DNA from: Clostridia bacterium
GTDB lineage: Bacteria; Bacillota; Clostridia; Christensenellales; Aristaeellaceae
Reading direction: 5' to 3'
Length of the DNA: 48,702 nucleotides
Assembly (NCBI GenBank): GCA_017434085.1
Contig: JAFRFY010000174.1
Location: forward strand, 1 to 48,702
The position numbers and the translations under genes are program-made. The notes under the pieces were generated by a model. The model was not told where the DNA came from. It ran no database searches and saw only the letters and a list, made by a program, of their open reading frames with translations. This document shows positions 2,173-44,839 of the stretch, piece by piece (the stretch's first letter is position 1; each line of letters opens with the position of its first letter).

Positions 2173-3978
2173 TCAGCGCTTCTTATAGAACGGGCCGTAG
2201 TTGGCGCAGGCGCGATAGTCGGCGCCCTCCTTGTCCATGCCGAAGGCGTTCCAGGCCGCGGGGCGGTAGATCTTCTCCACGGGCACGTTGTGCATCGCCA
2301 CGGGGATGCGCAGCATGGAGGCGAAGGTGATCAGGTCCGCGCCGATGTGGCCGTAGCTGATCGCGCCGTGGTTGGCGCCCCAGTTGCCCATGACCTCATA
2401 CGCGGTCTTGAAGGGGCTGCCCTCTTTGCCGTCGCAGCGGGGGGCGAACCAGGTGCAGGGCCAGGTGTAGTCGGTGCGCTTCCAGAGGATGTCGTTGACC
2501 TCGTCGGGCAGCTCGACCGTCCAGCCCTCGGCGATCTGCAGCATCGGGCCCAGGCCGTCCACCAGGTTTAAGCGGATCATGGTGGCGGGCATCTCGCAGT
2601 CCGTCACGAAGCGGCTGGAGTATCCGCCGCCGCGGAAGTAGCCCAGATCGGCGTAGTTCCAGGTGGTGTGCGCCATGATGGCCTCCTGGTCGGCCTCGGT
2701 GACCTCGTACCAGGGCTTCATCACGCGGTTGCCGTCCTTGTCCCTGGCCTGGCCGTTGGCGTCCAGGCAGCACGCGCCGGAGTTGATCAGGTGGATGATG
2801 CCGCCGTTCTCCTTCGCCTTGCCCTCCAGGTCATAGCCGGTGACGCGCTTGACGGACGCCGGGCTCCAGAAGGTGCGCACGTCGGCGAACATCTGGGCCT
2901 TGTTGGTGAGCAGCTTCATGAACAGCATGCCCAGGCCGTTGAGCACGTCGTTCTCGGTGGCCAGCACGTAGGGCTCGCGCGCGCCGTTGTGGTCGAAGCT
3001 GGTGTTCAGCATGGCCTCGGGGAAGTCGCAGTTCGGATAGAAGTCGGTCCACTGGCGCTGGCCCTGGAAGCCGCCGGCGATGGCGTTGTGGCCCACCATC
3101 TCCTCCTCCGCGCCCTTGGGCAGGTTGGGATTGCCGTTCATCAGGTCCTTGATGATCAGGTACATCTTGAGGGTGAACTCCCAGTCCTTGGCCTTCTGCT
3201 CCTTGGAGCGCTGCATGGCCTCGGGGTTCTTGTCGAAGCCCTCCTTGACGTGCACGTCCGCCCAGGCCTTGAGCTTCTCATACTCCTTCTGGTCGTAGAT
3301 GCCCTCGGTCATGCGGCGGATGATCTCCACCTCGTCCACGGACTCGACGCGCATGCCCAGGTATTCCTCGATGAACTTGGAGTCGATGATGGAGCCGCCG
3401 ATGCCCATGCAGATGGAGCCGATCTGCAGATAGCTCTTGCCCCGCATGGTGGCCACGGCCACGGCCGCGCGGCCGAAGCGGAGCAGCTTTTCCCTGACGT
3501 CCTCGGGGATCACAGTGTCGTCGGCGTCCTGCACGTCATGGCCGTAGATGCCGAAGGCCGGCAGGCCCTTCTGGGCGTGGGTGGCCAGCACGCTTGCCAG
3601 GTACACCGCGCCGGGGCGCTCGGTGGCGTTTAAACCCCACACGGCCTTGATGGTGTTGCGGTCCATGTCCATGGTCTCGGAGCCGTAGCACCAGCAGGGG
3701 GTCACGGTCAGTGTGATGGCCACGCCCTCGCGGCGGAACTTCTCCTCGCAGGCGGCGGTCTCGGCCACGCGGCCGATGGTGGTGTCGGCGATGACCACCT
3801 TCACGGGCTCGCCGTTGGTGTAGCGCAGGTTCTCCTCGAACAGCTTCGCGGCGGACCGCGCCATGTTCATGGTCTGCTCCTCCAGGCTCTCGCGTACCTT
3901 CAGCGGTCCGCGGCGGCCGTCGATGACCGGGCGGATGCCGATGGCCGGATAGCTGCCCAAATACCTGTTCTTTGCCAT
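2173..3978 (-). CDS. fucI: L-fucose isomerase
   Basis: Aldose-ketose isomerase converting L-fucose to L-fuculose (the family also uses D-arabinose), Mn2+-dependent and cytosolic. The 601 residues match the usual length of about 590-600. Family signatures include [13 protein letters not shown], the ATENDVLNG block (metal-ligand Glu), [10 protein letters not shown] (ligand Asp, 24 residues later as in the E. coli enzyme) and the [14 protein letters not shown] block (ligand His). The start is fixed by AAGGAGG upstream of the ATG at 3978. It is divergent from an AraC-type regulator, its likely controller. No fucK, fucA or transporter gene is present, so the rest of the pathway must be elsewhere. 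Confidence 0.96.
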
Positions 3979-4130
3979 AGAAATCAGTCCTCCTTAAAAT
4001 TGCCGTCATTTCTGACAATGCAAATATCGTTTTTACCGTCAACTTTACTATACCATTGATTGTATCGGTTGTATTGTGCTATAATGGCAAAAAATAAAAG
4101 AATTTTCACTTTTATGTATTCGCGGCGTCA

Positions 4131-4159
4131 TTGACTTTGGCGCGGTACTATTATAAAAT
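4131..4159 (+). promoter_or_regulatory. Sigma-A-type promoter reading into the 32-codon ORF and araC-type gene
   Basis: TTGACT (4131-4136), 17-bp spacer, TAAAAT (4154-4159). The start site would be near 4166. The transcript would begin with a GTCCC-GCGA-GGGAC hairpin (4165-4178) and a second stem (about 4182-4212) before reaching the ribosome site of the small ORF. It is also the best candidate for transcription of the regulator gene by read-through. Confidence 0.6.
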
Positions 4160-4236
4160 AAAAGTGTCCCGCGAGGGACCGGGAGCGGGCACAAACGCCA
4201 TGGCGGTTGCTCCATCATCCCTGCGAAGGGAGGTGG

Positions 4237-4335
4237 ATGCATGCGTATATCACATTCCACATCGGGAAATATACGGTGACAATCGTTATATGTGAGACGC
4301 ATCGCACAAAGAACAGCCGCCACTCCGCCAAGTGA
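4237..4335 (+). CDS. 32-codon ORF, putative type I toxin-like peptide
   Basis: Predicted peptide of 32 residues starting MHAYITFHIG, with an alternating hydrophobic/polar core (YTVTIVI) and a basic tail (TKNSRHSAK). It is preceded by a very strong ribosome site, AAGGGAGGTGG at 4226-4236. The spacing to this ATG is unusually short, while the ATG at 4241 has better spacing but opens a different, 12-codon frame. The last codons lie inside a hairpin (4315-4340). A consensus promoter on the opposite strand points into it from downstream. The layout (short ORF, structured 5' leader, antisense RNA over the 3' end) is that of type I toxin-antitoxin loci; the peptide family itself is not recognised with certainty. 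Confidence 0.45.
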   Translation: MHAYITFHIGKYTVTIVICETHRTKNSRHSAK

Positions 4336-4409
4336 CGGCTGCCTTTGCGGTGTAAAACTGCAAACACAGTAACAGCTTGAGGAGCAACCGCGTGTGCGGC
4401 CCGCTCTTC
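4310..4409 (-). ncRNA. Predicted antisense RNA opposing the 32-codon ORF
   Basis: Inferred transcript from the minus-strand promoter at 4416-4444, starting near 4409. Its 5' end would fold into the 4382-4406 hairpin. It would end after the 4315-4340 hairpin, which on this strand is followed by the T-rich GTTCTTTGT. Length would be about 100 nt, complementary to the last 7 or so codons and the 3' untranslated part of the sense mRNA. No homology is claimed; the call rests on promoter and hairpin placement. Confidence 0.4.
4315..4340. terminator. Hairpin over the 3' end of the small ORF, possible bidirectional terminator
   Basis: AGCCGCCACT and AGTGACGGCT pair over 10 positions with one mismatch around a CCGCCA loop. 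It lies across the stop codon (4333-4335) of the 32-codon ORF. T-rich sequence follows weakly on both strands, so it could end both the sense and the antisense transcript. A second hairpin at 4382-4406 is followed by TTCGTCTTT and may be the stronger sense-strand stop. Confidence 0.5.
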
Positions 4410-4415
4410 GTCTTT

Positions 4416-4444
4416 ATTATAACGCGGACCATCGCTTTTGTCAA
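4416..4444 (-). promoter_or_regulatory. Perfect consensus antisense promoter
   Basis: On the minus strand TTGACA (4444-4439), exactly 17 bp, TATAAT (4421-4416). It fires away from the AraC-type gene and into the 3' end of the 32-codon ORF. The -35 box overlaps the ribosome site (AAGGAG, 4443-4448) of the downstream regulator gene, so the two signals share bases. With fucI starting about 440 bp further on, an antisense RNA is a more economical explanation than a distant fucI promoter. Confidence 0.65.
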
Positions 4445-4454
4445 GGAGCAGCGC

Positions 4455-8033: not shown

Positions 8034-8702
8034 ATGCGCAAGGTGATGATCATACTGCTCGCGCTCGTGCTGGCGCTGCCGCTGGCGGCCCGGGGGGAGG
8101 GCGCAGACGTGTTGGTGGAGAGCTTTATACAGCGCACCGGCGTCCGGGCGGATGCCGCGATGCGGGAGAAGATCGGGGCGTTCCTCAGGGAGAAGTCCAT
8201 CAGCGCCCAGGTGCTGGACATGATCGACGACGCCCTGCTTCAGAGCTACGCGCGGCACCTGTCGGAGGACATTCCCATAGACTATGCCGCGCTGCTGGAC
8301 GCGCCGTCCCTGCCCATGCCCGAGGGGGCGAAGGTCCTCCGGCTGGCGGTGCTGCAGCCCGAGGGGGCGGCCATGGAATCGCTGCTGGCGGACTTTGAGC
8401 GCGGCCTGGTGTACTACGACGAGAACTGGCCCGTGCCCGAGGACGTCTGCCGCGCGCAATACGCCGGGACGCTGTCCGACGCGGCGGGGGCGGCGCTCTT
8501 GGAGCGGTTGGACGGCATGACGCTGGAGGACCAGTGCGGCGACATCGCCGGGATGGAATTTGGCGCCATACGGGTGGCCGTGGCCTGGGAGGGCGGCGTC
8601 ACGCGCTGCACGGCGGCGGGCGAGGGCGTATCGGAGGCATTTTTGGACGGCGTTTGCGCGCTGCTGGAGACGGGGCGCGCGGCGGCGCAGGGAGAACTGT
8701 GA
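8034..8702 (+). CDS. Secreted protein of unknown function, 222 aa
   Basis: Not recognised. A signal peptide (RKVMIILLALVLALPLAARG, cleavage near residue 22) predicts export. The mature part is acidic and Ala/Leu-rich, probably alpha/beta, with two cysteines near the middle and two more in the C-terminal third. AGGAGG at 8021-8026 sets the start. Its stop overlaps the start of the next gene (TGATG), so the two are translationally coupled and probably work together at the cell surface. A possible extended -10 (TGGTAAAAT, 7983-7991) lies upstream. Confidence 0.85.
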   Translation: MRKVMIILLALVLALPLAARGEGADVLVESFIQRTGVRADAAMREKIGAFLREKSISAQVLDMIDDALLQSYARHLSEDIPIDYAALLDAPSLPMPEGAKVLRLAVLQPEGAAMESLLADFERGLVYYDENWPVPEDVCRAQYAGTLSDAAGAALLERLDGMTLEDQCGDIAGMEFGAIRVAVAWEGGVTRCTAAGEGVSEAFLDGVCALLETGRAAAQGEL

Positions 8703-11700
8703 TGAAAAAGGATTGTTTGAAGCGGCTGACGGCGTGGCTGCTGGCGGCGCTTTTGATGGCTTCGCCCGCGCTGGCCGAGGCTGACGACGCGCCGGTCGTC
8801 ATGACGGCGGCGGTGGACGCCGAGGTGGCGGAGGCCGACCTGATGGACCTCCCCGATGACGACGACGCGGAGCCCCTCGACGACGCCATCGAAGGGGTCT
8901 GGGAGGCTGTGCCCGCGGAGGCGGCCGCCCTGGAGGTTTCGGCGGAGCCCGCGACCTCCGGAGAGTATGCCGAAGGGACGCCCGGGACGCAGGCCGCGCC
9001 GGAGCCCGCGGCGGACGCCGCTGCGATGGAACCCGTCGCGGAGGAAACTTCCGCGGAGGATGCCGCCGCGGAGGGCGCGGAGAATCCCGCAGCGGAGGGC
9101 GTGAAGAACCCTGCTGAGGAGGGCGTGAAGGACGCCGAAGAGAGCGCCAAACCCGTGTCTGCGGCGCAAACCGTGAAGCCGTCCGAGGCGACGGCGGAGC
9201 AAAAGCCCGTTGAAAAGGCGGGGGAGAAGTCCGGCGAGGATACTGAAGAAGCATCAGAAAAGACTGAGTCAAAATCGGAAAAGGACGAGGCTGCATCAGA
9301 TAAAGACGAGGTTTCATCGGAAAAGGATGAGGATACGTCGGAAGAGGACGAGGTAAAATCGGATAAGGACGAGGATACGTCGGAAAAGGACGAGGATTCA
9401 TCGGAAAAGACTGGGGGAGCATCGGAAAAGGACGAGGATTCATCGGAAAAGACTGAGGGAACATCGGAAAAGGACGAGGATTCATCGGAAAAGGACGAGG
9501 ATTCATCGGAAAAGGACGAGGATACGTCGGAAGAGGACGAGGCTAAATCGGAAAAGGACGAGGATTCATCGAAAAAGACCGAGGCTGCGTCGGATAAGGA
9601 CGAGGCTACATCGGAGAAGGACGAGATTACATCGAAGAAGGCCGAGGCGTCGTCTTCGGAGCCCGCGGTGGCAACACCGGCGGCACCGGCGGCGCCTGCG
9701 GCAGAAGCGGCACCGGCGGCGGAGGAAGCGCCCGCGCCGGCGCTGCTGGAGGCCGAGATCTACATGGGCAAGGGCGAAAAGCGCGTGCTGACGCCCGCCT
9801 GCGACCCGTCGGCGGTCGGCGCGATCACCTGGGCGTCCTCAAAGCCCGGGGTGGTGTCCGTGTCCAGGGCCGGCAAGTTGACCGCCCGCAGGCGGGGCAG
9901 CGCCGTGATCACCGTGGCGACGCAGAGCGGCCTGTCCGCCACCTGCCTGGTGCACGTGAACAAGGCCCCCGCCAAGGTGCGCATACTCCCCGGGAAGAAG
10001 CTGTCCATGGGCGCGGGCGAGACCTTTGTGTTCGGCGCGAAGCTGTCCAAGGGCGCGAGCTCGGCGCTGCGGTGGTCCAGCACCAACCCCGCCGTGGTGT
10101 CGGTGAACGCCCTGGGCGTGGCGACGGCGTCCGCCCCGGGCACGGCGAAGATCGTGGTCAGGACCTTCAACGGAAAGAAGGCCGCCTGCAAGGTCAGGGT
10201 GCATGCCGCGCCCACCGCCGTGGCGCTCTCCGCGGGGGATCAGACGCTGGGCGTGGGTATGACCGTGGACATGAAGCCCATCGTCAACGCGGGCGCGGCG
10301 GCGAACGTCGTGCTGTCCAGCGACAACCTGGGCGTGGCCGTCGTCAACGGCAACAAGGTCACCGGCGTGGCCCCGGGCACCGCGGTGATCACCGCCACGA
10401 CCTACAACGGGCTCGCCGCCGCCGCCACGGTGACGGTGGTGCCCGCGCCCACCGCCGTGGGGCTGGGCTACGCCACGCTGCACATGGGCGTGGGCGAGAA
10501 GCTGACGCTGCGGCCCGCCACCAATCCGGGCAGCTATGCCTCCTTTACCTACAGGAGCAGCAAGAAGAGCGTGGTCAGGGTGTCCGCCGGCGGCGTGATC
10601 AAGGCCCGGAAGCGGGGCAGCGCCACCGTGACCGTCACCACCTACAACGGCCTCAGGACCCGGGTGAAGGTGAAGGTGTACAAGGCCCCCTCCAAGCTGA
10701 CGCTCAAGCCCAAGTCGCTGGCCATGGAGCCGGGCGGCACCTATCAGCTCAAGGCCGTTGTGCCCAAGGGCTCCGCGGCCATGGTGACCTTTGCCAGCAG
10801 CGATCCCGGGGTGGTGTCCGTGGACGCCGCGGGCGTGCTGCACGCCTACCGGATCGGCGCCGCCACCATCACCGGCGTCACCTACAATCACAAGAAGGCG
10901 ACCTGCAAGGTGATCGTGGGGGACTTCTCCGGCGGCGGCACGGTCGGCGCGGACGGCAACGTGCTGACGCTGAGCAGCCAGGGCATGGTGATGCTGGCCA
11001 AGGGCGCGACCTGGTCCCTGACCGCCTCCGCCACGGGAGGATTGAAGGGCATCACCTGGTCCACTACCGCGAAGGCCATCGCCTCGATCAGCGCCGACGG
11101 CGCTTCCTGCACCGTCAAGGGTGCGGGGTCCGGCACGGCCATTGTGGGCGCGAAGCTGCCCGGCGGCGCTACCGCCTCCGTGATCGTCATGGTGGCGGAC
11201 ACCGGCGATCTGTCCACGACCAACTTCAACAACGTCTTAAAGGCGCTGCTGACCCACGAGGAGCTGATCAACAGCGACGCCGGGGGCAATGTGATCTGGG
11301 ACATGGTGTCCGCCAAGCTGCGCAAGGCCGGGATACTGCAGGAGCGCGTGAACAGCCTGATCGCCAGCCTGCGCGGGGCCGACCCCACCTACCGCAACCT
11401 GTACCTCTATTCGCTGGGCACCTACGACATCGTGGCGGAAAAGGCCAGCCTGTCGGCGTCCTACTTCGATCAGGACAGCGACAAGCTCTACCTGAAGCGC
11501 AGCAGCAAGTATGCCTCCGGCACGCTCTACGACTACGTGGTGTTCCACGAATCCGGCCACGCCATCGACTGGAACTACAACGGCGGCGGGCTGGATTCGC
11601 TCAACGATGACGCCACGGCCGCGCTGCTCTCCGACGTGCGCAAGCTGCTGACGGACCGGGTGGCCGCCGCCATCTCCGCCGCGGGGGTGACCTCCGCCGT

Positions 11701-12169
11701 GGATGGCGAAAAGGTGGTCAATGCGCTGATGGACTACCGGACGCTTCTGAACTTCGACGTGGTCCGCAGCGAGCTGGGCCTCACCGACGACGAGGTGACG
11801 GTCTACACCCAGCTGGCAAACAGCATGGGCGCGGAGATGAACACCACGCTGCCCGTCAACAACGGCTGCATGGTGTGGGACGCCGTCGAGGGCGCGACCA
11901 ACTACGCCGTGCACGGCAGCTTCGGCCACTACTACCTGCTCAACAGCACGCAGTACGCCAACGCCGCCAAGACCTACTTCTACAACCTGCAGGGCACGCC
12001 CTCCATCACCACGGAGCCCTGGGCGGAGTTCTTCTCCGCGAACGTCATGGGCGACAGCAATACCCTCCAGAAGAACTGGAGCTACCTGCCCCAGACCTGC
12101 AAGTACTTCGCGGAGAAGTTCGTGCCGAAGCTTGTGGAATACTTTACCGATAAGATCAAGAACGCTTGA
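8702..12169 (+). CDS. Large secreted protein: heptapeptide repeats, six Ig-like (BIG2) repeats, C-terminal HESGH metallopeptidase-like domain
   Basis: 1,155 residues from the ATG at 8702, which overlaps the previous stop; an upstream in-frame start would sit inside the preceding gene. Signal peptide at about 1-27. Residues about 28-180 are acidic, Ala/Glu-rich disordered sequence. Residues 182-314 are 19 tandem heptapeptides of the EDSSEKD type. An Ala/Pro linker follows, then six bacterial Ig-like group 2 repeats (about 350-840) with recurrent GVVSV and G.A.ITV.TYNG motifs. The last 315 residues hold HESGH (H949-H953) and a downstream TEPWAEFF (E1105, E1109), the arrangement of gluzincin zinc peptidases resembling the anthrax lethal-factor fold. 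There is no LPXTG motif or C-terminal membrane anchor, so the protein is secreted or held non-covalently. Peptidase activity and target are inference. Confidence 0.88.
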   Translation: MKKDCLKRLTAWLLAALLMASPALAEADDAPVVMTAAVDAEVAEADLMDLPDDDDAEPLDDAIEGVWEAVPAEAAALEVSAEPATSGEYAEGTPGTQAAPEPAADAAAMEPVAEETSAEDAAAEGAENPAAEGVKNPAEEGVKDAEESAKPVSAAQTVKPSEATAEQKPVEKAGEKSGEDTEEASEKTESKSEKDEAASDKDEVSSEKDEDTSEEDEVKSDKDEDTSEKDEDSSEKTGGASEKDEDSSEKTEGTSEKDEDSSEKDEDSSEKDEDTSEEDEAKSEKDEDSSKKTEAASDKDEATSEKDEITSKKAEASSSEPAVATPAAPAAPAAEAAPAAEEAPAPALLEAEIYMGKGEKRVLTPACDPSAVGAITWASSKPGVVSVSRAGKLTARRRGSAVITVATQSGLSATCLVHVNKAPAKVRILPGKKLSMGAGETFVFGAKLSKGASSALRWSSTNPAVVSVNALGVATASAPGTAKIVVRTFNGKKAACKVRVHAAPTAVALSAGDQTLGVGMTVDMKPIVNAGAAANVVLSSDNLGVAVVNGNKVTGVAPGTAVITATTYNGLAAAATVTVVPAPTAVGLGYATLHMGVGEKLTLRPATNPGSYASFTYRSSKKSVVRVSAGGVIKARKRGSATVTVTTYNGLRTRVKVKVYKAPSKLTLKPKSLAMEPGGTYQLKAVVPKGSAAMVTFASSDPGVVSVDAAGVLHAYRIGAATITGVTYNHKKATCKVIVGDFSGGGTVGADGNVLTLSSQGMVMLAKGATWSLTASATGGLKGITWSTTAKAIASISADGASCTVKGAGSGTAIVGAKLPGGATASVIVMVADTGDLSTTNFNNVLKALLTHEELINSDAGGNVIWDMVSAKLRKAGILQERVNSLIASLRGADPTYRNLYLYSLGTYDIVAEKASLSASYFDQDSDKLYLKRSSKYASGTLYDYVVFHESGHAIDWNYNGGGLDSLNDDATAALLSDVRKLLTDRVAAAISAAGVTSAVDGEKVVNALMDYRTLLNFDVVRSELGLTDDEVTVYTQLANSMGAEMNTTLPVNNGCMVWDAVEGATNYAVHGSFGHYYLLNSTQYANAAKTYFYNLQGTPSITTEPWAEFFSANVMGDSNTLQKNWSYLPQTCKYFAEKFVPKLVEYFTDKIKNA
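9245..9643 (+). repeat. 19-copy 21-nt tandem repeat encoding heptapeptides
   Basis: Nineteen in-frame 21-nt units encode heptapeptides of the pattern E-x-x-S-E/D-K-D/T (EDSSEKD, EDTSEED, EAASDKD and so on). A degenerate twentieth follows at 9644. The unit is visibly more A-rich (TCGGAAAAGGACGAG) than the flanking GC-rich coding sequence. Copies differ by few bases, as expected for expansion by slippage or unequal recombination. The encoded segment should be a highly charged extended spacer. Confidence 0.95.
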
Positions 12170-44659: not shown

Positions 44660-44832
44660 GAAGGCATATGGAGTTCACCTGCACCGTTCGAGCTTCAGCT
44701 TCGCAGGGCGGTGTAATTGCGTTAGACGGTACCTTGTGCTTCGATATCGCCTGTTCAAACCATCTGATGGTGTCTCCACCACTTCGCGGCAGCAATCCAT
44801 ATCCCTGCGGTAGCCTTACTTACCGGATATCA
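44631..44832 (-). ncRNA. M-box (ykoK) magnesium riboswitch with terminator
   Basis: The minus strand shows the conserved M-box segments: TAAGTAAGGCTACCGCAGGG near its start (about 44820-44800), ATTGCTGCCGCGAAGTGGTG, the ACACCATCAGATGGTTTGAA hairpin, CAGGCGATATCGAAGCACAA and GGTACCGTCTAACGC. The expression platform is the terminator at 44631-44659. High Mg2+ would favour termination before mgtE. Recognised by pattern; exact edges are approximate. Confidence 0.88.
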
Positions 44833-44839
44833 CGCTTCT

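What the first reader, a model, noticed from the sequence alone, without database searches (positions are those of the whole stretch)
4131..4444. Probable type I toxin-antitoxin module of unrecognised family between fucI and its regulator
Seen: a sense promoter (TTGACT-17-TAAAAT), a hairpin-rich leader, an AAGGGAGGTGG ribosome site, a 32-codon ORF with a hydrophobic beta-like core and basic tail, a hairpin over its stop codon, and a perfect TTGACA-17-TATAAT promoter facing it on the other strand. Known: TxpA/RatA, BsrG/SR4 and Fst/RNAII loci have this convergent plan with a short hydrophobic peptide and a 3'-overlapping antisense RNA. Inference: the locus is such a system, with a peptide (MHAYITFHIG...) not obviously Fst, TxpA or a holin-like toxin. 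The overlap of the antisense -35 with the regulator's ribosome site could also tie it to fucI control.
Basis: partly seen in the sequence, partly recalled or inferred. Interest (0 to 1): 0.85.

Follow-up and report, generated by a model that had tools for sequence, protein, structure and literature searches.

The report
New family of antisense-guarded peptide genes
A tiny unannotated gene next to a sugar-use gene belongs to a family of peptide genes in gut Clostridia that no library searched here knows, each facing its own antisense RNA gene, and it looks like a new kind of toxin with an RNA antidote, although poisoning has not been tested.

Summary
Window 4131-4444 is one copy of a dispersed family that runs from one promoter to the other. 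The family occurs in 18 of 28 genomes of the genus (the window's counted), in other Clostridia named in public records, and in IMG/VR contigs. Conserved: a peptide of about 28 residues (M-R-I-T-F-H-I-G-K/R-Y-T-V-T-I-I-V, basic tail) with synonymous-biased change; a sense promoter usually one base off consensus; a facing antisense promoter, 12/12 in 51 of 60 copies; a stop-codon hairpin with a T-run on the antisense side in 39 of 39; a ribosome-site hairpin; and a covarying 5'-3' clamp in the mRNA. Best reading: a new type I toxin-antitoxin-like family with a locked mRNA and an antisense RNA of about 105 nt. The peptide has no transmembrane-like stretch and looks beta-amphipathic, unlike known membrane type I toxins. 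Transcription and toxicity are untested, and what would unlock the mRNA is not shown. The link to fucI is incidental: two relatives have the same intergene without the element.

The parts
4131..4159 (+). Sense promoter TTGACT-17-TAAAAT (10/12)
   Evidence: a sense promoter of >=10/12 in 49 of 60 copies
4166..4179 (+). 5' hairpin at the start of the mRNA (GTCCC-GCGA-GGGAC)
   Evidence: first 24 nt fold with E <= -3 in 38 of 40 copies, mean z -2.1; several single copies are near z 0
4183..4190 (+). Outer 5' arm of the 5'-3' clamp (GAGCGGGC), pairs with 4399-4406
   Evidence: helix 1, all 6 pairs have double changes; held in the window's minimum-energy fold
4203..4213 (+). Inner 5' arm of the clamp (GCGGTTGCTCC), pairs with 4381-4391
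   Evidence: helix 2, 96.4% of cells paired; in the window the minimum-energy fold prefers another partner, ensemble probability 0.77
4212..4236 (+). Hairpin that holds the ribosome site GGGAGGTG (4228-4235)
   Evidence: (helix 3, family); the window's own hairpin is in a shifted register
4237..4335 (+). Peptide ORF, MHAYITFHIGKYTVTIVICETHRTKNSRHSAK, in frame with the family
4241..4243 (+). Family start codon; out of frame here because of a 2-nt insertion in the following TATATA
   Evidence: alignment with 34 other copies
4314..4341 (.). Hairpin over the stop codon = predicted terminator of the antisense RNA
   Evidence: (T-run on minus side 39 of 39, plus side 9 of 39)
4344..4364 (.). Spacer hairpin of very variable sequence inside the antisense RNA; candidate specificity element
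   Evidence: 36% mean identity against 61-86% in the other segments downstream of the 5' hairpin
4381..4391 (+). Inner 3' arm of the clamp (GGAGCAACCGC)
4399..4406 (+). Outer 3' arm of the clamp (GCCCGCTC)
4306..4409 (-). Predicted antisense RNA (antitoxin), about 105 nt, ending in the T-rich stretch 4313-4306 (5 T in 8)
   Evidence: promoter and terminator; transcription not tested
4416..4444 (-). Antisense promoter TTGACA-17-TATAAT (12/12)

Best explanation
This is a type I toxin-antitoxin-like module of a new family. Shown by sequence: a conserved short peptide gene; a facing antisense gene with, as a rule, the better promoter and a terminator-like hairpin at the peptide's stop codon; and an mRNA with a ribosome-site hairpin and a covarying 5'-3' clamp. 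Inferred: (1) the antisense RNA (about 105 nt) pairs with the 3' half of the mRNA (stop codon, variable hairpin, 3' clamp arm) and blocks it or marks it for cleavage; (2) the full-length mRNA is inert until its 3' end is trimmed or antisense RNA runs out, which frees the 5' arm as a landing site for ribosomes; (3) the peptide, a beta-amphipathic basic peptide, then harms or stalls the cell, perhaps by aggregating or at the membrane; (4) copies serve as addiction or stress modules. The window copy is partly decayed by a 2-nt insertion at the start codon.
For: Conservation at many loci and in several copies per genome (up to 5 peptide matches in a genome of the genus, G022, and 8 in G915). Codon-level selection in copies found by DNA alone. 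Both promoters in place; the antisense one scores better in 50 of 60 copies. Antisense-side T-run in 39 of 39 copies against 9 of 39 on the sense side. Covariation of clamp, ribosome-site hairpin and stop hairpin: 94.2% of cells paired, 83 double-change cells against 22.8 shuffled, 0 of 500. Clamp cells that are not Watson-Crick: 45 G-U in the sense RNA against 11 that would be G-U in the antisense RNA, 22 neither (a looser count gave 84 against 15, with 97 transversions). Minimum-energy folds hold at least half of the outer clamp in 31 of 38 copies, inner clamp in 35, ribosome-site hairpin in 32, stop hairpin in 27. Decay: 11 of 35 copies scored as altered or without a start (at least 2 over-called). 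Genes beside 17 of 61 loci, scanned for families, are varied.
Against: No transcript or toxicity data. No transmembrane-like stretch (best 19-residue hydropathy 0.31-1.05 in 4 peptides), unlike known membrane type I toxins. The promoter asymmetry is not universal: equal in 9 of 60 copies, including both cultured carriers (L060, L109: 12/12 each), reversed in 1; among 8 copies from another class the antisense is better in 4, equal in 2, worse in 2. The antisense T-run lies in lysine-rich tail codons, so it could partly be a by-product of the basic tail. Predicted folds do not show that 3' trimming opens the ribosome site: unpaired fraction 0.00-0.14 after removal of the last 45 nt against 0.01-0.16 before, in 6 copies. 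No intrinsic terminator for the sense RNA (3 of 38, 3.2 expected), so its 3' end is unknown. In the window copy the canonical start is out of frame and the minimum-energy fold lacks the inner clamp. Spread outside the genus is thin in the draws.
Confidence: 0.68

Rival explanations
1. A non-toxic regulated small-protein gene: the same RNA architecture controls a benign peptide (for example a membrane or enzyme-binding regulator) rather than a toxin.
For: Conservation of peptide and RNA parts does not prove harm; the peptide lacks the transmembrane helix of known membrane type I toxins.
Against: Several copies per genome, decayed copies, tandem copies, varied neighbours and presence in IMG/VR contigs fit addiction modules better than a single-function regulator.
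Confidence: 0.22
2. A MITE-like mobile repeat with inverted repeats and promoter-like ends, spreading without coding function.
For: Multi-copy, inverted repeats just inside both ends, present or absent as a block at the fucI/araC site.
Against: Promoter spacers vary while hexamers stay; codon-level selection; structural covariation with a sense-strand G-U bias; no target-site duplication was apparent by eye at the fucI site.
Confidence: 0.05
3. A cis-regulatory leader of fucI or of the araC-type regulator, specific to this locus.
For: In this genome and in G003, G005 and G025 the element lies just upstream of araC; in the window the minus -35 overlaps the araC ribosome site and a promoter-like site lies upstream at 4056-4085.
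Against: G021 and G017 keep fucI and araC in the same arrangement without the element; many copies lie elsewhere.
Confidence: 0.03

Closest known systems
TxpA/RatA and BsrG/SR4 (Bacillus type I TA)
   Same: Convergent genes; antisense RNA overlapping the 3' part of the peptide mRNA (architecture recalled; families named in PMC6563280, section 3 of the paper).
   Different: No family-library match for the peptide; no transmembrane-like segment; the antisense terminator lies at the peptide's stop codon and both RNAs share the same 5' sequence.
Fst/RNAII (par) and Fst/Ldr peptides
   Same: Short peptide with basic tail, convergent RNAs, ribosome site held by a 5' structure (recalled).
   Different: No match to any Pfam model; par uses direct repeats so that the RNAs are complementary at the 5' ends (recalled), whereas here the repeat is inverted so the 5' ends are alike.
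AapA/IsoA (Helicobacter) and Hok/Sok
   Same: Full-length toxin mRNA closed by a 5'-3' long-distance interaction, with ribosome-site hairpins; several chromosomal copies in the case of AapA (PMC6733600, passages).
   Different: Here the predicted antisense RNA covers the 3' half of the mRNA and carries a copy of its 5' arm; no library match for the peptide; different phylum. 3' trimming was not predicted to open the ribosome site.
Clostridioides difficile type I TA (CD2517.1-RCd8, CD0956.2-RCd10 and others)
   Same: Convergent plan, small peptides with charged tails in Clostridia, several modules per genome, prophage association (PMC6563280).
   Different: Those toxins are 34-59 residues with a transmembrane domain; this one is mostly 25-32 residues and beta-amphipathic. 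No direct sequence comparison with them was run.

Membership tests
Type I toxin-antitoxin (class) | Short ORF under selection as protein | tested here: met
   synonymous fraction 0.46 vs 0.19 mean, 0.34 max in 300 column shuffles (34 of 35 copies gap-free); one search agrees but its copies were found by a peptide pattern
Type I toxin-antitoxin (class) | Cis antisense RNA gene overlapping the peptide mRNA | tested here: inconclusive
   met at sequence level: promoter and terminator-like hairpin; transcription not testable here
Type I toxin-antitoxin (class) | Peptide is toxic to the host cell | not testable with these tools
   needs induction assay
Type I toxin-antitoxin (class) | Antisense RNA neutralises the peptide mRNA | not testable with these tools
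   needs co-expression assay
Membrane-associated type I toxins | Hydrophobic alpha-helical transmembrane segment | tested here: not met
Fst/Ldr | Match to a Fst or Ldr family model | tested here: not met
   no Pfam family and no NCBIfam family at E <= 10; that these libraries hold Fst/Ldr models is recalled
TxpA/BsrG | Peptide homology to TxpA/BsrG | tested here: inconclusive
   no library hit; presence of a TxpA model in the libraries was not checked
AapA/IsoA-type mRNA control | 5'-3' long-distance interaction in the toxin mRNA | tested here: met
   (covariation and predicted folds; no probing)
AapA/IsoA | Peptide homology; antisense at the mRNA 5' end | tested here: inconclusive
   no library hit for the peptide but no AapA sequence was compared; antisense lies at the 3' half here, the IsoA position being recalled

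The most novel reading that the evidence does not exclude
A new kind of type I module whose poison is a beta-hairpin or amyloid-like basic peptide instead of a membrane helix, and whose antitoxin RNA carries a copy of the toxin mRNA's own 5' arm, so that it invades the mRNA's 5'-3' clamp while terminating inside the toxin's last codons (the basic tail of the toxin being dictated by the antitoxin's terminator).
Probability: 0.3. Interest if true: 0.8.

Novelty: new variant of a known kind. Interest (0 to 1): 0.62.

Why it matters
Type I modules are hard to find because their parts are tiny. A review read here in part says that homology searches found known type I toxins in few clostridial species and that the feature-based search required predicted transmembrane regions (PMC6563280). 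This family lacks such a region and would probably be missed. It offers a large testable set in rumen and gut bacteria, with copies in the named strains Vescimonas fastidiosa MM35 and Pseudoflavonifractor phocaeensis An901. One RNA hairpin seems to serve as peptide stop, peptide tail and antisense terminator.

Tried and rejected
Rfam: one match in the window, an M-box far from the element; none near it at E<=5; three matches in 14 relatives' loci, none on the element. Peptide libraries Pfam, NCBIfam, PHROGs, PADLOC: none. Solved structures: two weak, unconvincing hits, E 0.056 and 0.49. Phage GenBank records: none; plasmids: one record, Vescimonas (one search repeated 23 without gain). DNA search of plasmids and phages: none. 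fucI-specific leader: rejected by empty sites. Stop-codon hairpin as a bidirectional terminator: my first idea, rejected by T-run asymmetry. A sense-strand terminator beyond the clamp: not found. Opening of the ribosome site by 3' trimming: not seen in predicted folds.

Papers: the motif search gave two unrelated hits. Searches listed no report of this family, but the lists were partial (20 of 85, 6 of 6, 15 of 21, 9 of 9, 10 of 7,091 and 12 of 16), and the library holds open-licence papers only. PMC6563280 was seen as outline, abstract and two sections; PMC8309996 as passages and one section; PMC6733600 as passages; all others only as listings.

Selections before counts: I held 62 copies in the peptide-found set (51 + 9 + 1 loci and the window). 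One search used 61 of 62, 54 unique, and is biased because a peptide pattern found them. One search used 60 (2 truncated). One search used 59, 55 unique (antisense promoter >=10/12 required). One search used 49 with both promoters, 40 after removing near-duplicates, and printed 14 folds. A2 used 38 of those 40; I left out L082 (insertion) and L111 (deletion). One search used 39 of 40; one search used 38 of 40. One search looked at 15 loci; my motif was found in 8, and the other 7 (L062, L128, L132, L134, L138, L140, L141) gave no row. The order and class hits besides the window's genome (G049, E 6.2e-4; G522, E 9.5e-5, tail residues only) are among those 7 and may be chance. One search's rule over-calls damage in at least two copies (L021, L026). 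Copies are related, so cell counts are not independent events; the structure tested was derived from the same alignment.

Full report
The finding points at window 4131-4444, between fucI (minus strand, 2173-3978) and an araC-type regulator (plus strand, start 4455; one search confirms both by their homologues in relatives).

It is a family. A blastn of the 482-base intergene against 60 relatives matched in 24 genomes, and showed that window ~4148-4445 recurs at unrelated loci, separately from the fucI upstream part. I fetched 39 loci and aligned 35 near-complete copies, the window's included. The conserved unit runs from one -35 box to the other; promoter spacers and flanks differ, hexamers do not. 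With a peptide profile it appears in 18 of 28 genomes of the genus, the window's counted. A scan of public genome contigs gave 51 loci, partly the same contigs, with titles that include Lachnospiraceae, Ruminococcaceae, Oscillospiraceae and Pseudoflavonifractor phocaeensis. One plasmid record, of Vescimonas fastidiosa, holds three places, the best of which has no annotated gene under it. Nine IMG/VR loci were found, six of them with nearly the same peptide.

Spread elsewhere is thin. Draws from order, class and phylum gave 2 of 297, 2 of 391 and 5 of 398 genomes, each counting the window's own. The single further hits in order and class are weak and unconfirmed; the phylum draw added four genomes, three of one genus outside the class.

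Neighbours, scanned at 17 of 61 loci, include GcpE, GyrB, RelA/SpoT, Obg, solute-binding proteins and a transposase. In 3 of 6 IMG/VR loci scanned they include an integrase, a tape-measure protein or an RNA ligase; several neighbours had no hit. Tandem or close copies occur.

The peptide is real. In the DNA-found set, 57% of differences fall at third positions, and the synonymous fraction is 0.46 against a shuffled mean of 0.19, maximum 0.34. The family mostly begins M-R-I-T-F-H-I-G, some copies M-R-M-R- or other short starts. In the window a 2-nt insertion after the family ATG (4241) shifts that start out of frame; the in-frame start is ATG 4237, three bases after GGAGG. This copy may be weak or decayed, or the indel may be an error in a 76%-complete draft genome. 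Of 35 copies 24 were scored intact; two more (L021, L026) look intact by eye.

The promoters are usually asymmetric, as expected of an antitoxin. Among 60 scorable copies the antisense promoter is 12/12 in 51 and the sense promoter in 5; the sense one is 11/12 in 32, typically TTGACA with TA[C/A/G]AAT. The antisense scores better in 50 of 60, equal in 9 and worse in 1; with both at least 10/12 it is better in 40 of 48 and equal in 8, which include both cultured carriers, L060 and L109. In 8 copies from three genomes outside the class both promoters recur (antisense >=10/12 in 8 of 8, sense in 6 of 8), but the asymmetry does not hold there: antisense better in 4, equal in 2, worse in 2.

The RNA looks built to be shut. 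Inside the promoters lies an inverted repeat. Own-copy similarity of its arms exceeds cross-copy similarity (32.2 vs 23.1, shuffled 14.4). In the clamp columns of the alignment 453 cells are Watson-Crick, 45 are G-U in the sense RNA, 11 would be G-U in the antisense RNA and 22 are neither, so the pairing appears selected in the mRNA, as a 5'-3' clamp. Covariation supports the clamp, the ribosome-site hairpin and the stop-codon hairpin: 94.2% of cells paired, 18 pairs with double changes, 0 of 500 shuffles as high, slid versions 35-54%. Two cautions apply: the structure was derived from this alignment, and the sequences are related.

Predicted folds agree in most copies but not all: at least half of the outer clamp in 31 of 38, inner clamp in 35, ribosome-site hairpin in 32, stop hairpin in 27. 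The window is an exception: its minimum-energy fold pairs the inner 5' arm with the stop-hairpin region instead, though the inner clamp has ensemble probability 0.77. In the window the outer clamp is GAGCGGGC/GCCCGCTC where the common form in the genus is GAGCGAAC/GTTCGCTC, a compensated change. The ribosome site is mostly paired in six predicted full RNAs (mean unpaired 0.01-0.16). Removing the last 45 nt leaves that unchanged (0.00-0.14), while removing the first 55 nt raises it to 0.16-0.38 in five, the sixth not measurable. So trimming the 3' end would free the 5' arm but is not predicted to free the ribosome site itself.

The stop-codon hairpin is followed by at least 5 T in 8 on the antisense side in 39 of 39 copies and on the sense side in 9 of 39: it should end the antisense RNA at about 105 nt, not the mRNA. 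A caution: those T's are the complement of lysine-rich tail codons. The sense RNA shows no intrinsic terminator (3 of 38, 3.2 expected), so its 3' end is open. Between hairpin and clamp lies a spacer, in many copies with a small hairpin, of very variable sequence (36% identity against 61-86% in the other segments downstream of the 5' hairpin), a candidate for cognate specificity.

Mechanism. Shown: conserved parts and their covariation. Inferred: the antisense RNA pairs with the 3' half of the mRNA; the mRNA is inert until something opens it; the peptide harms the cell. The last step is the weakest, as nothing here tests toxicity, and the peptide lacks a transmembrane-like stretch, which the review passages say membrane-associated type I toxins share, RalR and SymE being cytosolic exceptions (PMC8309996, passages and one section). 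It does have alternating hydrophobic residues and a basic tail.

Link to fucI. G021 and G017 have fucI and araC in the same arrangement with an intergene of about 150 bases and no element; G003, G005 and G025 have it. It is present or absent as a block, so it was gained or lost here. Because it sits just before araC its sense RNA could run into araC, but nothing suggests that this is its purpose.

Comparison. It works like type I modules with a convergent plan (TxpA/RatA, BsrG/SR4, C. difficile pairs; PMC6563280) and, for mRNA structure, like AapA/IsoA and Hok with a 5'-3' interaction (PMC6733600, passages). It matched no family model that I could search. I file it as a new variant of a known kind.

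Noticed in passing
L082:2906-2995 (G013) and L146 (G007): The ribosome-site and start region of two copies is replaced or interrupted by a ~90-nt dispersed repeat with matches in 20 of 28 genomes of the genus, 31 matches reported in G013 and 32 in G026; MITE-like or an insertion-sequence end.
   Followed up: partly
window 4056-4085 (+): A TTGATT-18-TATAAT promoter-like site, present by eye also in L010 and L015 that lack the element, lies upstream of the module, so araC transcripts from it would carry the whole module in their leader.
   Followed up: partly
window 44673-44834 (-): M-box (magnesium) riboswitch, 91 bits.
   Followed up: no
L022, L060, L093, L099, L103, L104/L107: Two or more copies in tandem or within a few kb; in L099 and L103 a second antisense half follows the first.
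   Followed up: partly
G915 (L129, L133, L135, L137-L141): A genome outside the window's class has 8 matches, with M-P-[IV]-R-type starts and both promoters in the five copies where my motif was found, which suggests horizontal spread.
   Followed up: partly
window 8534-12169 (+): Large ORF with a long Ser/Glu/Lys/Asp-rich repeat stretch followed by repeated Ig-like-looking segments (by eye).
   Followed up: no
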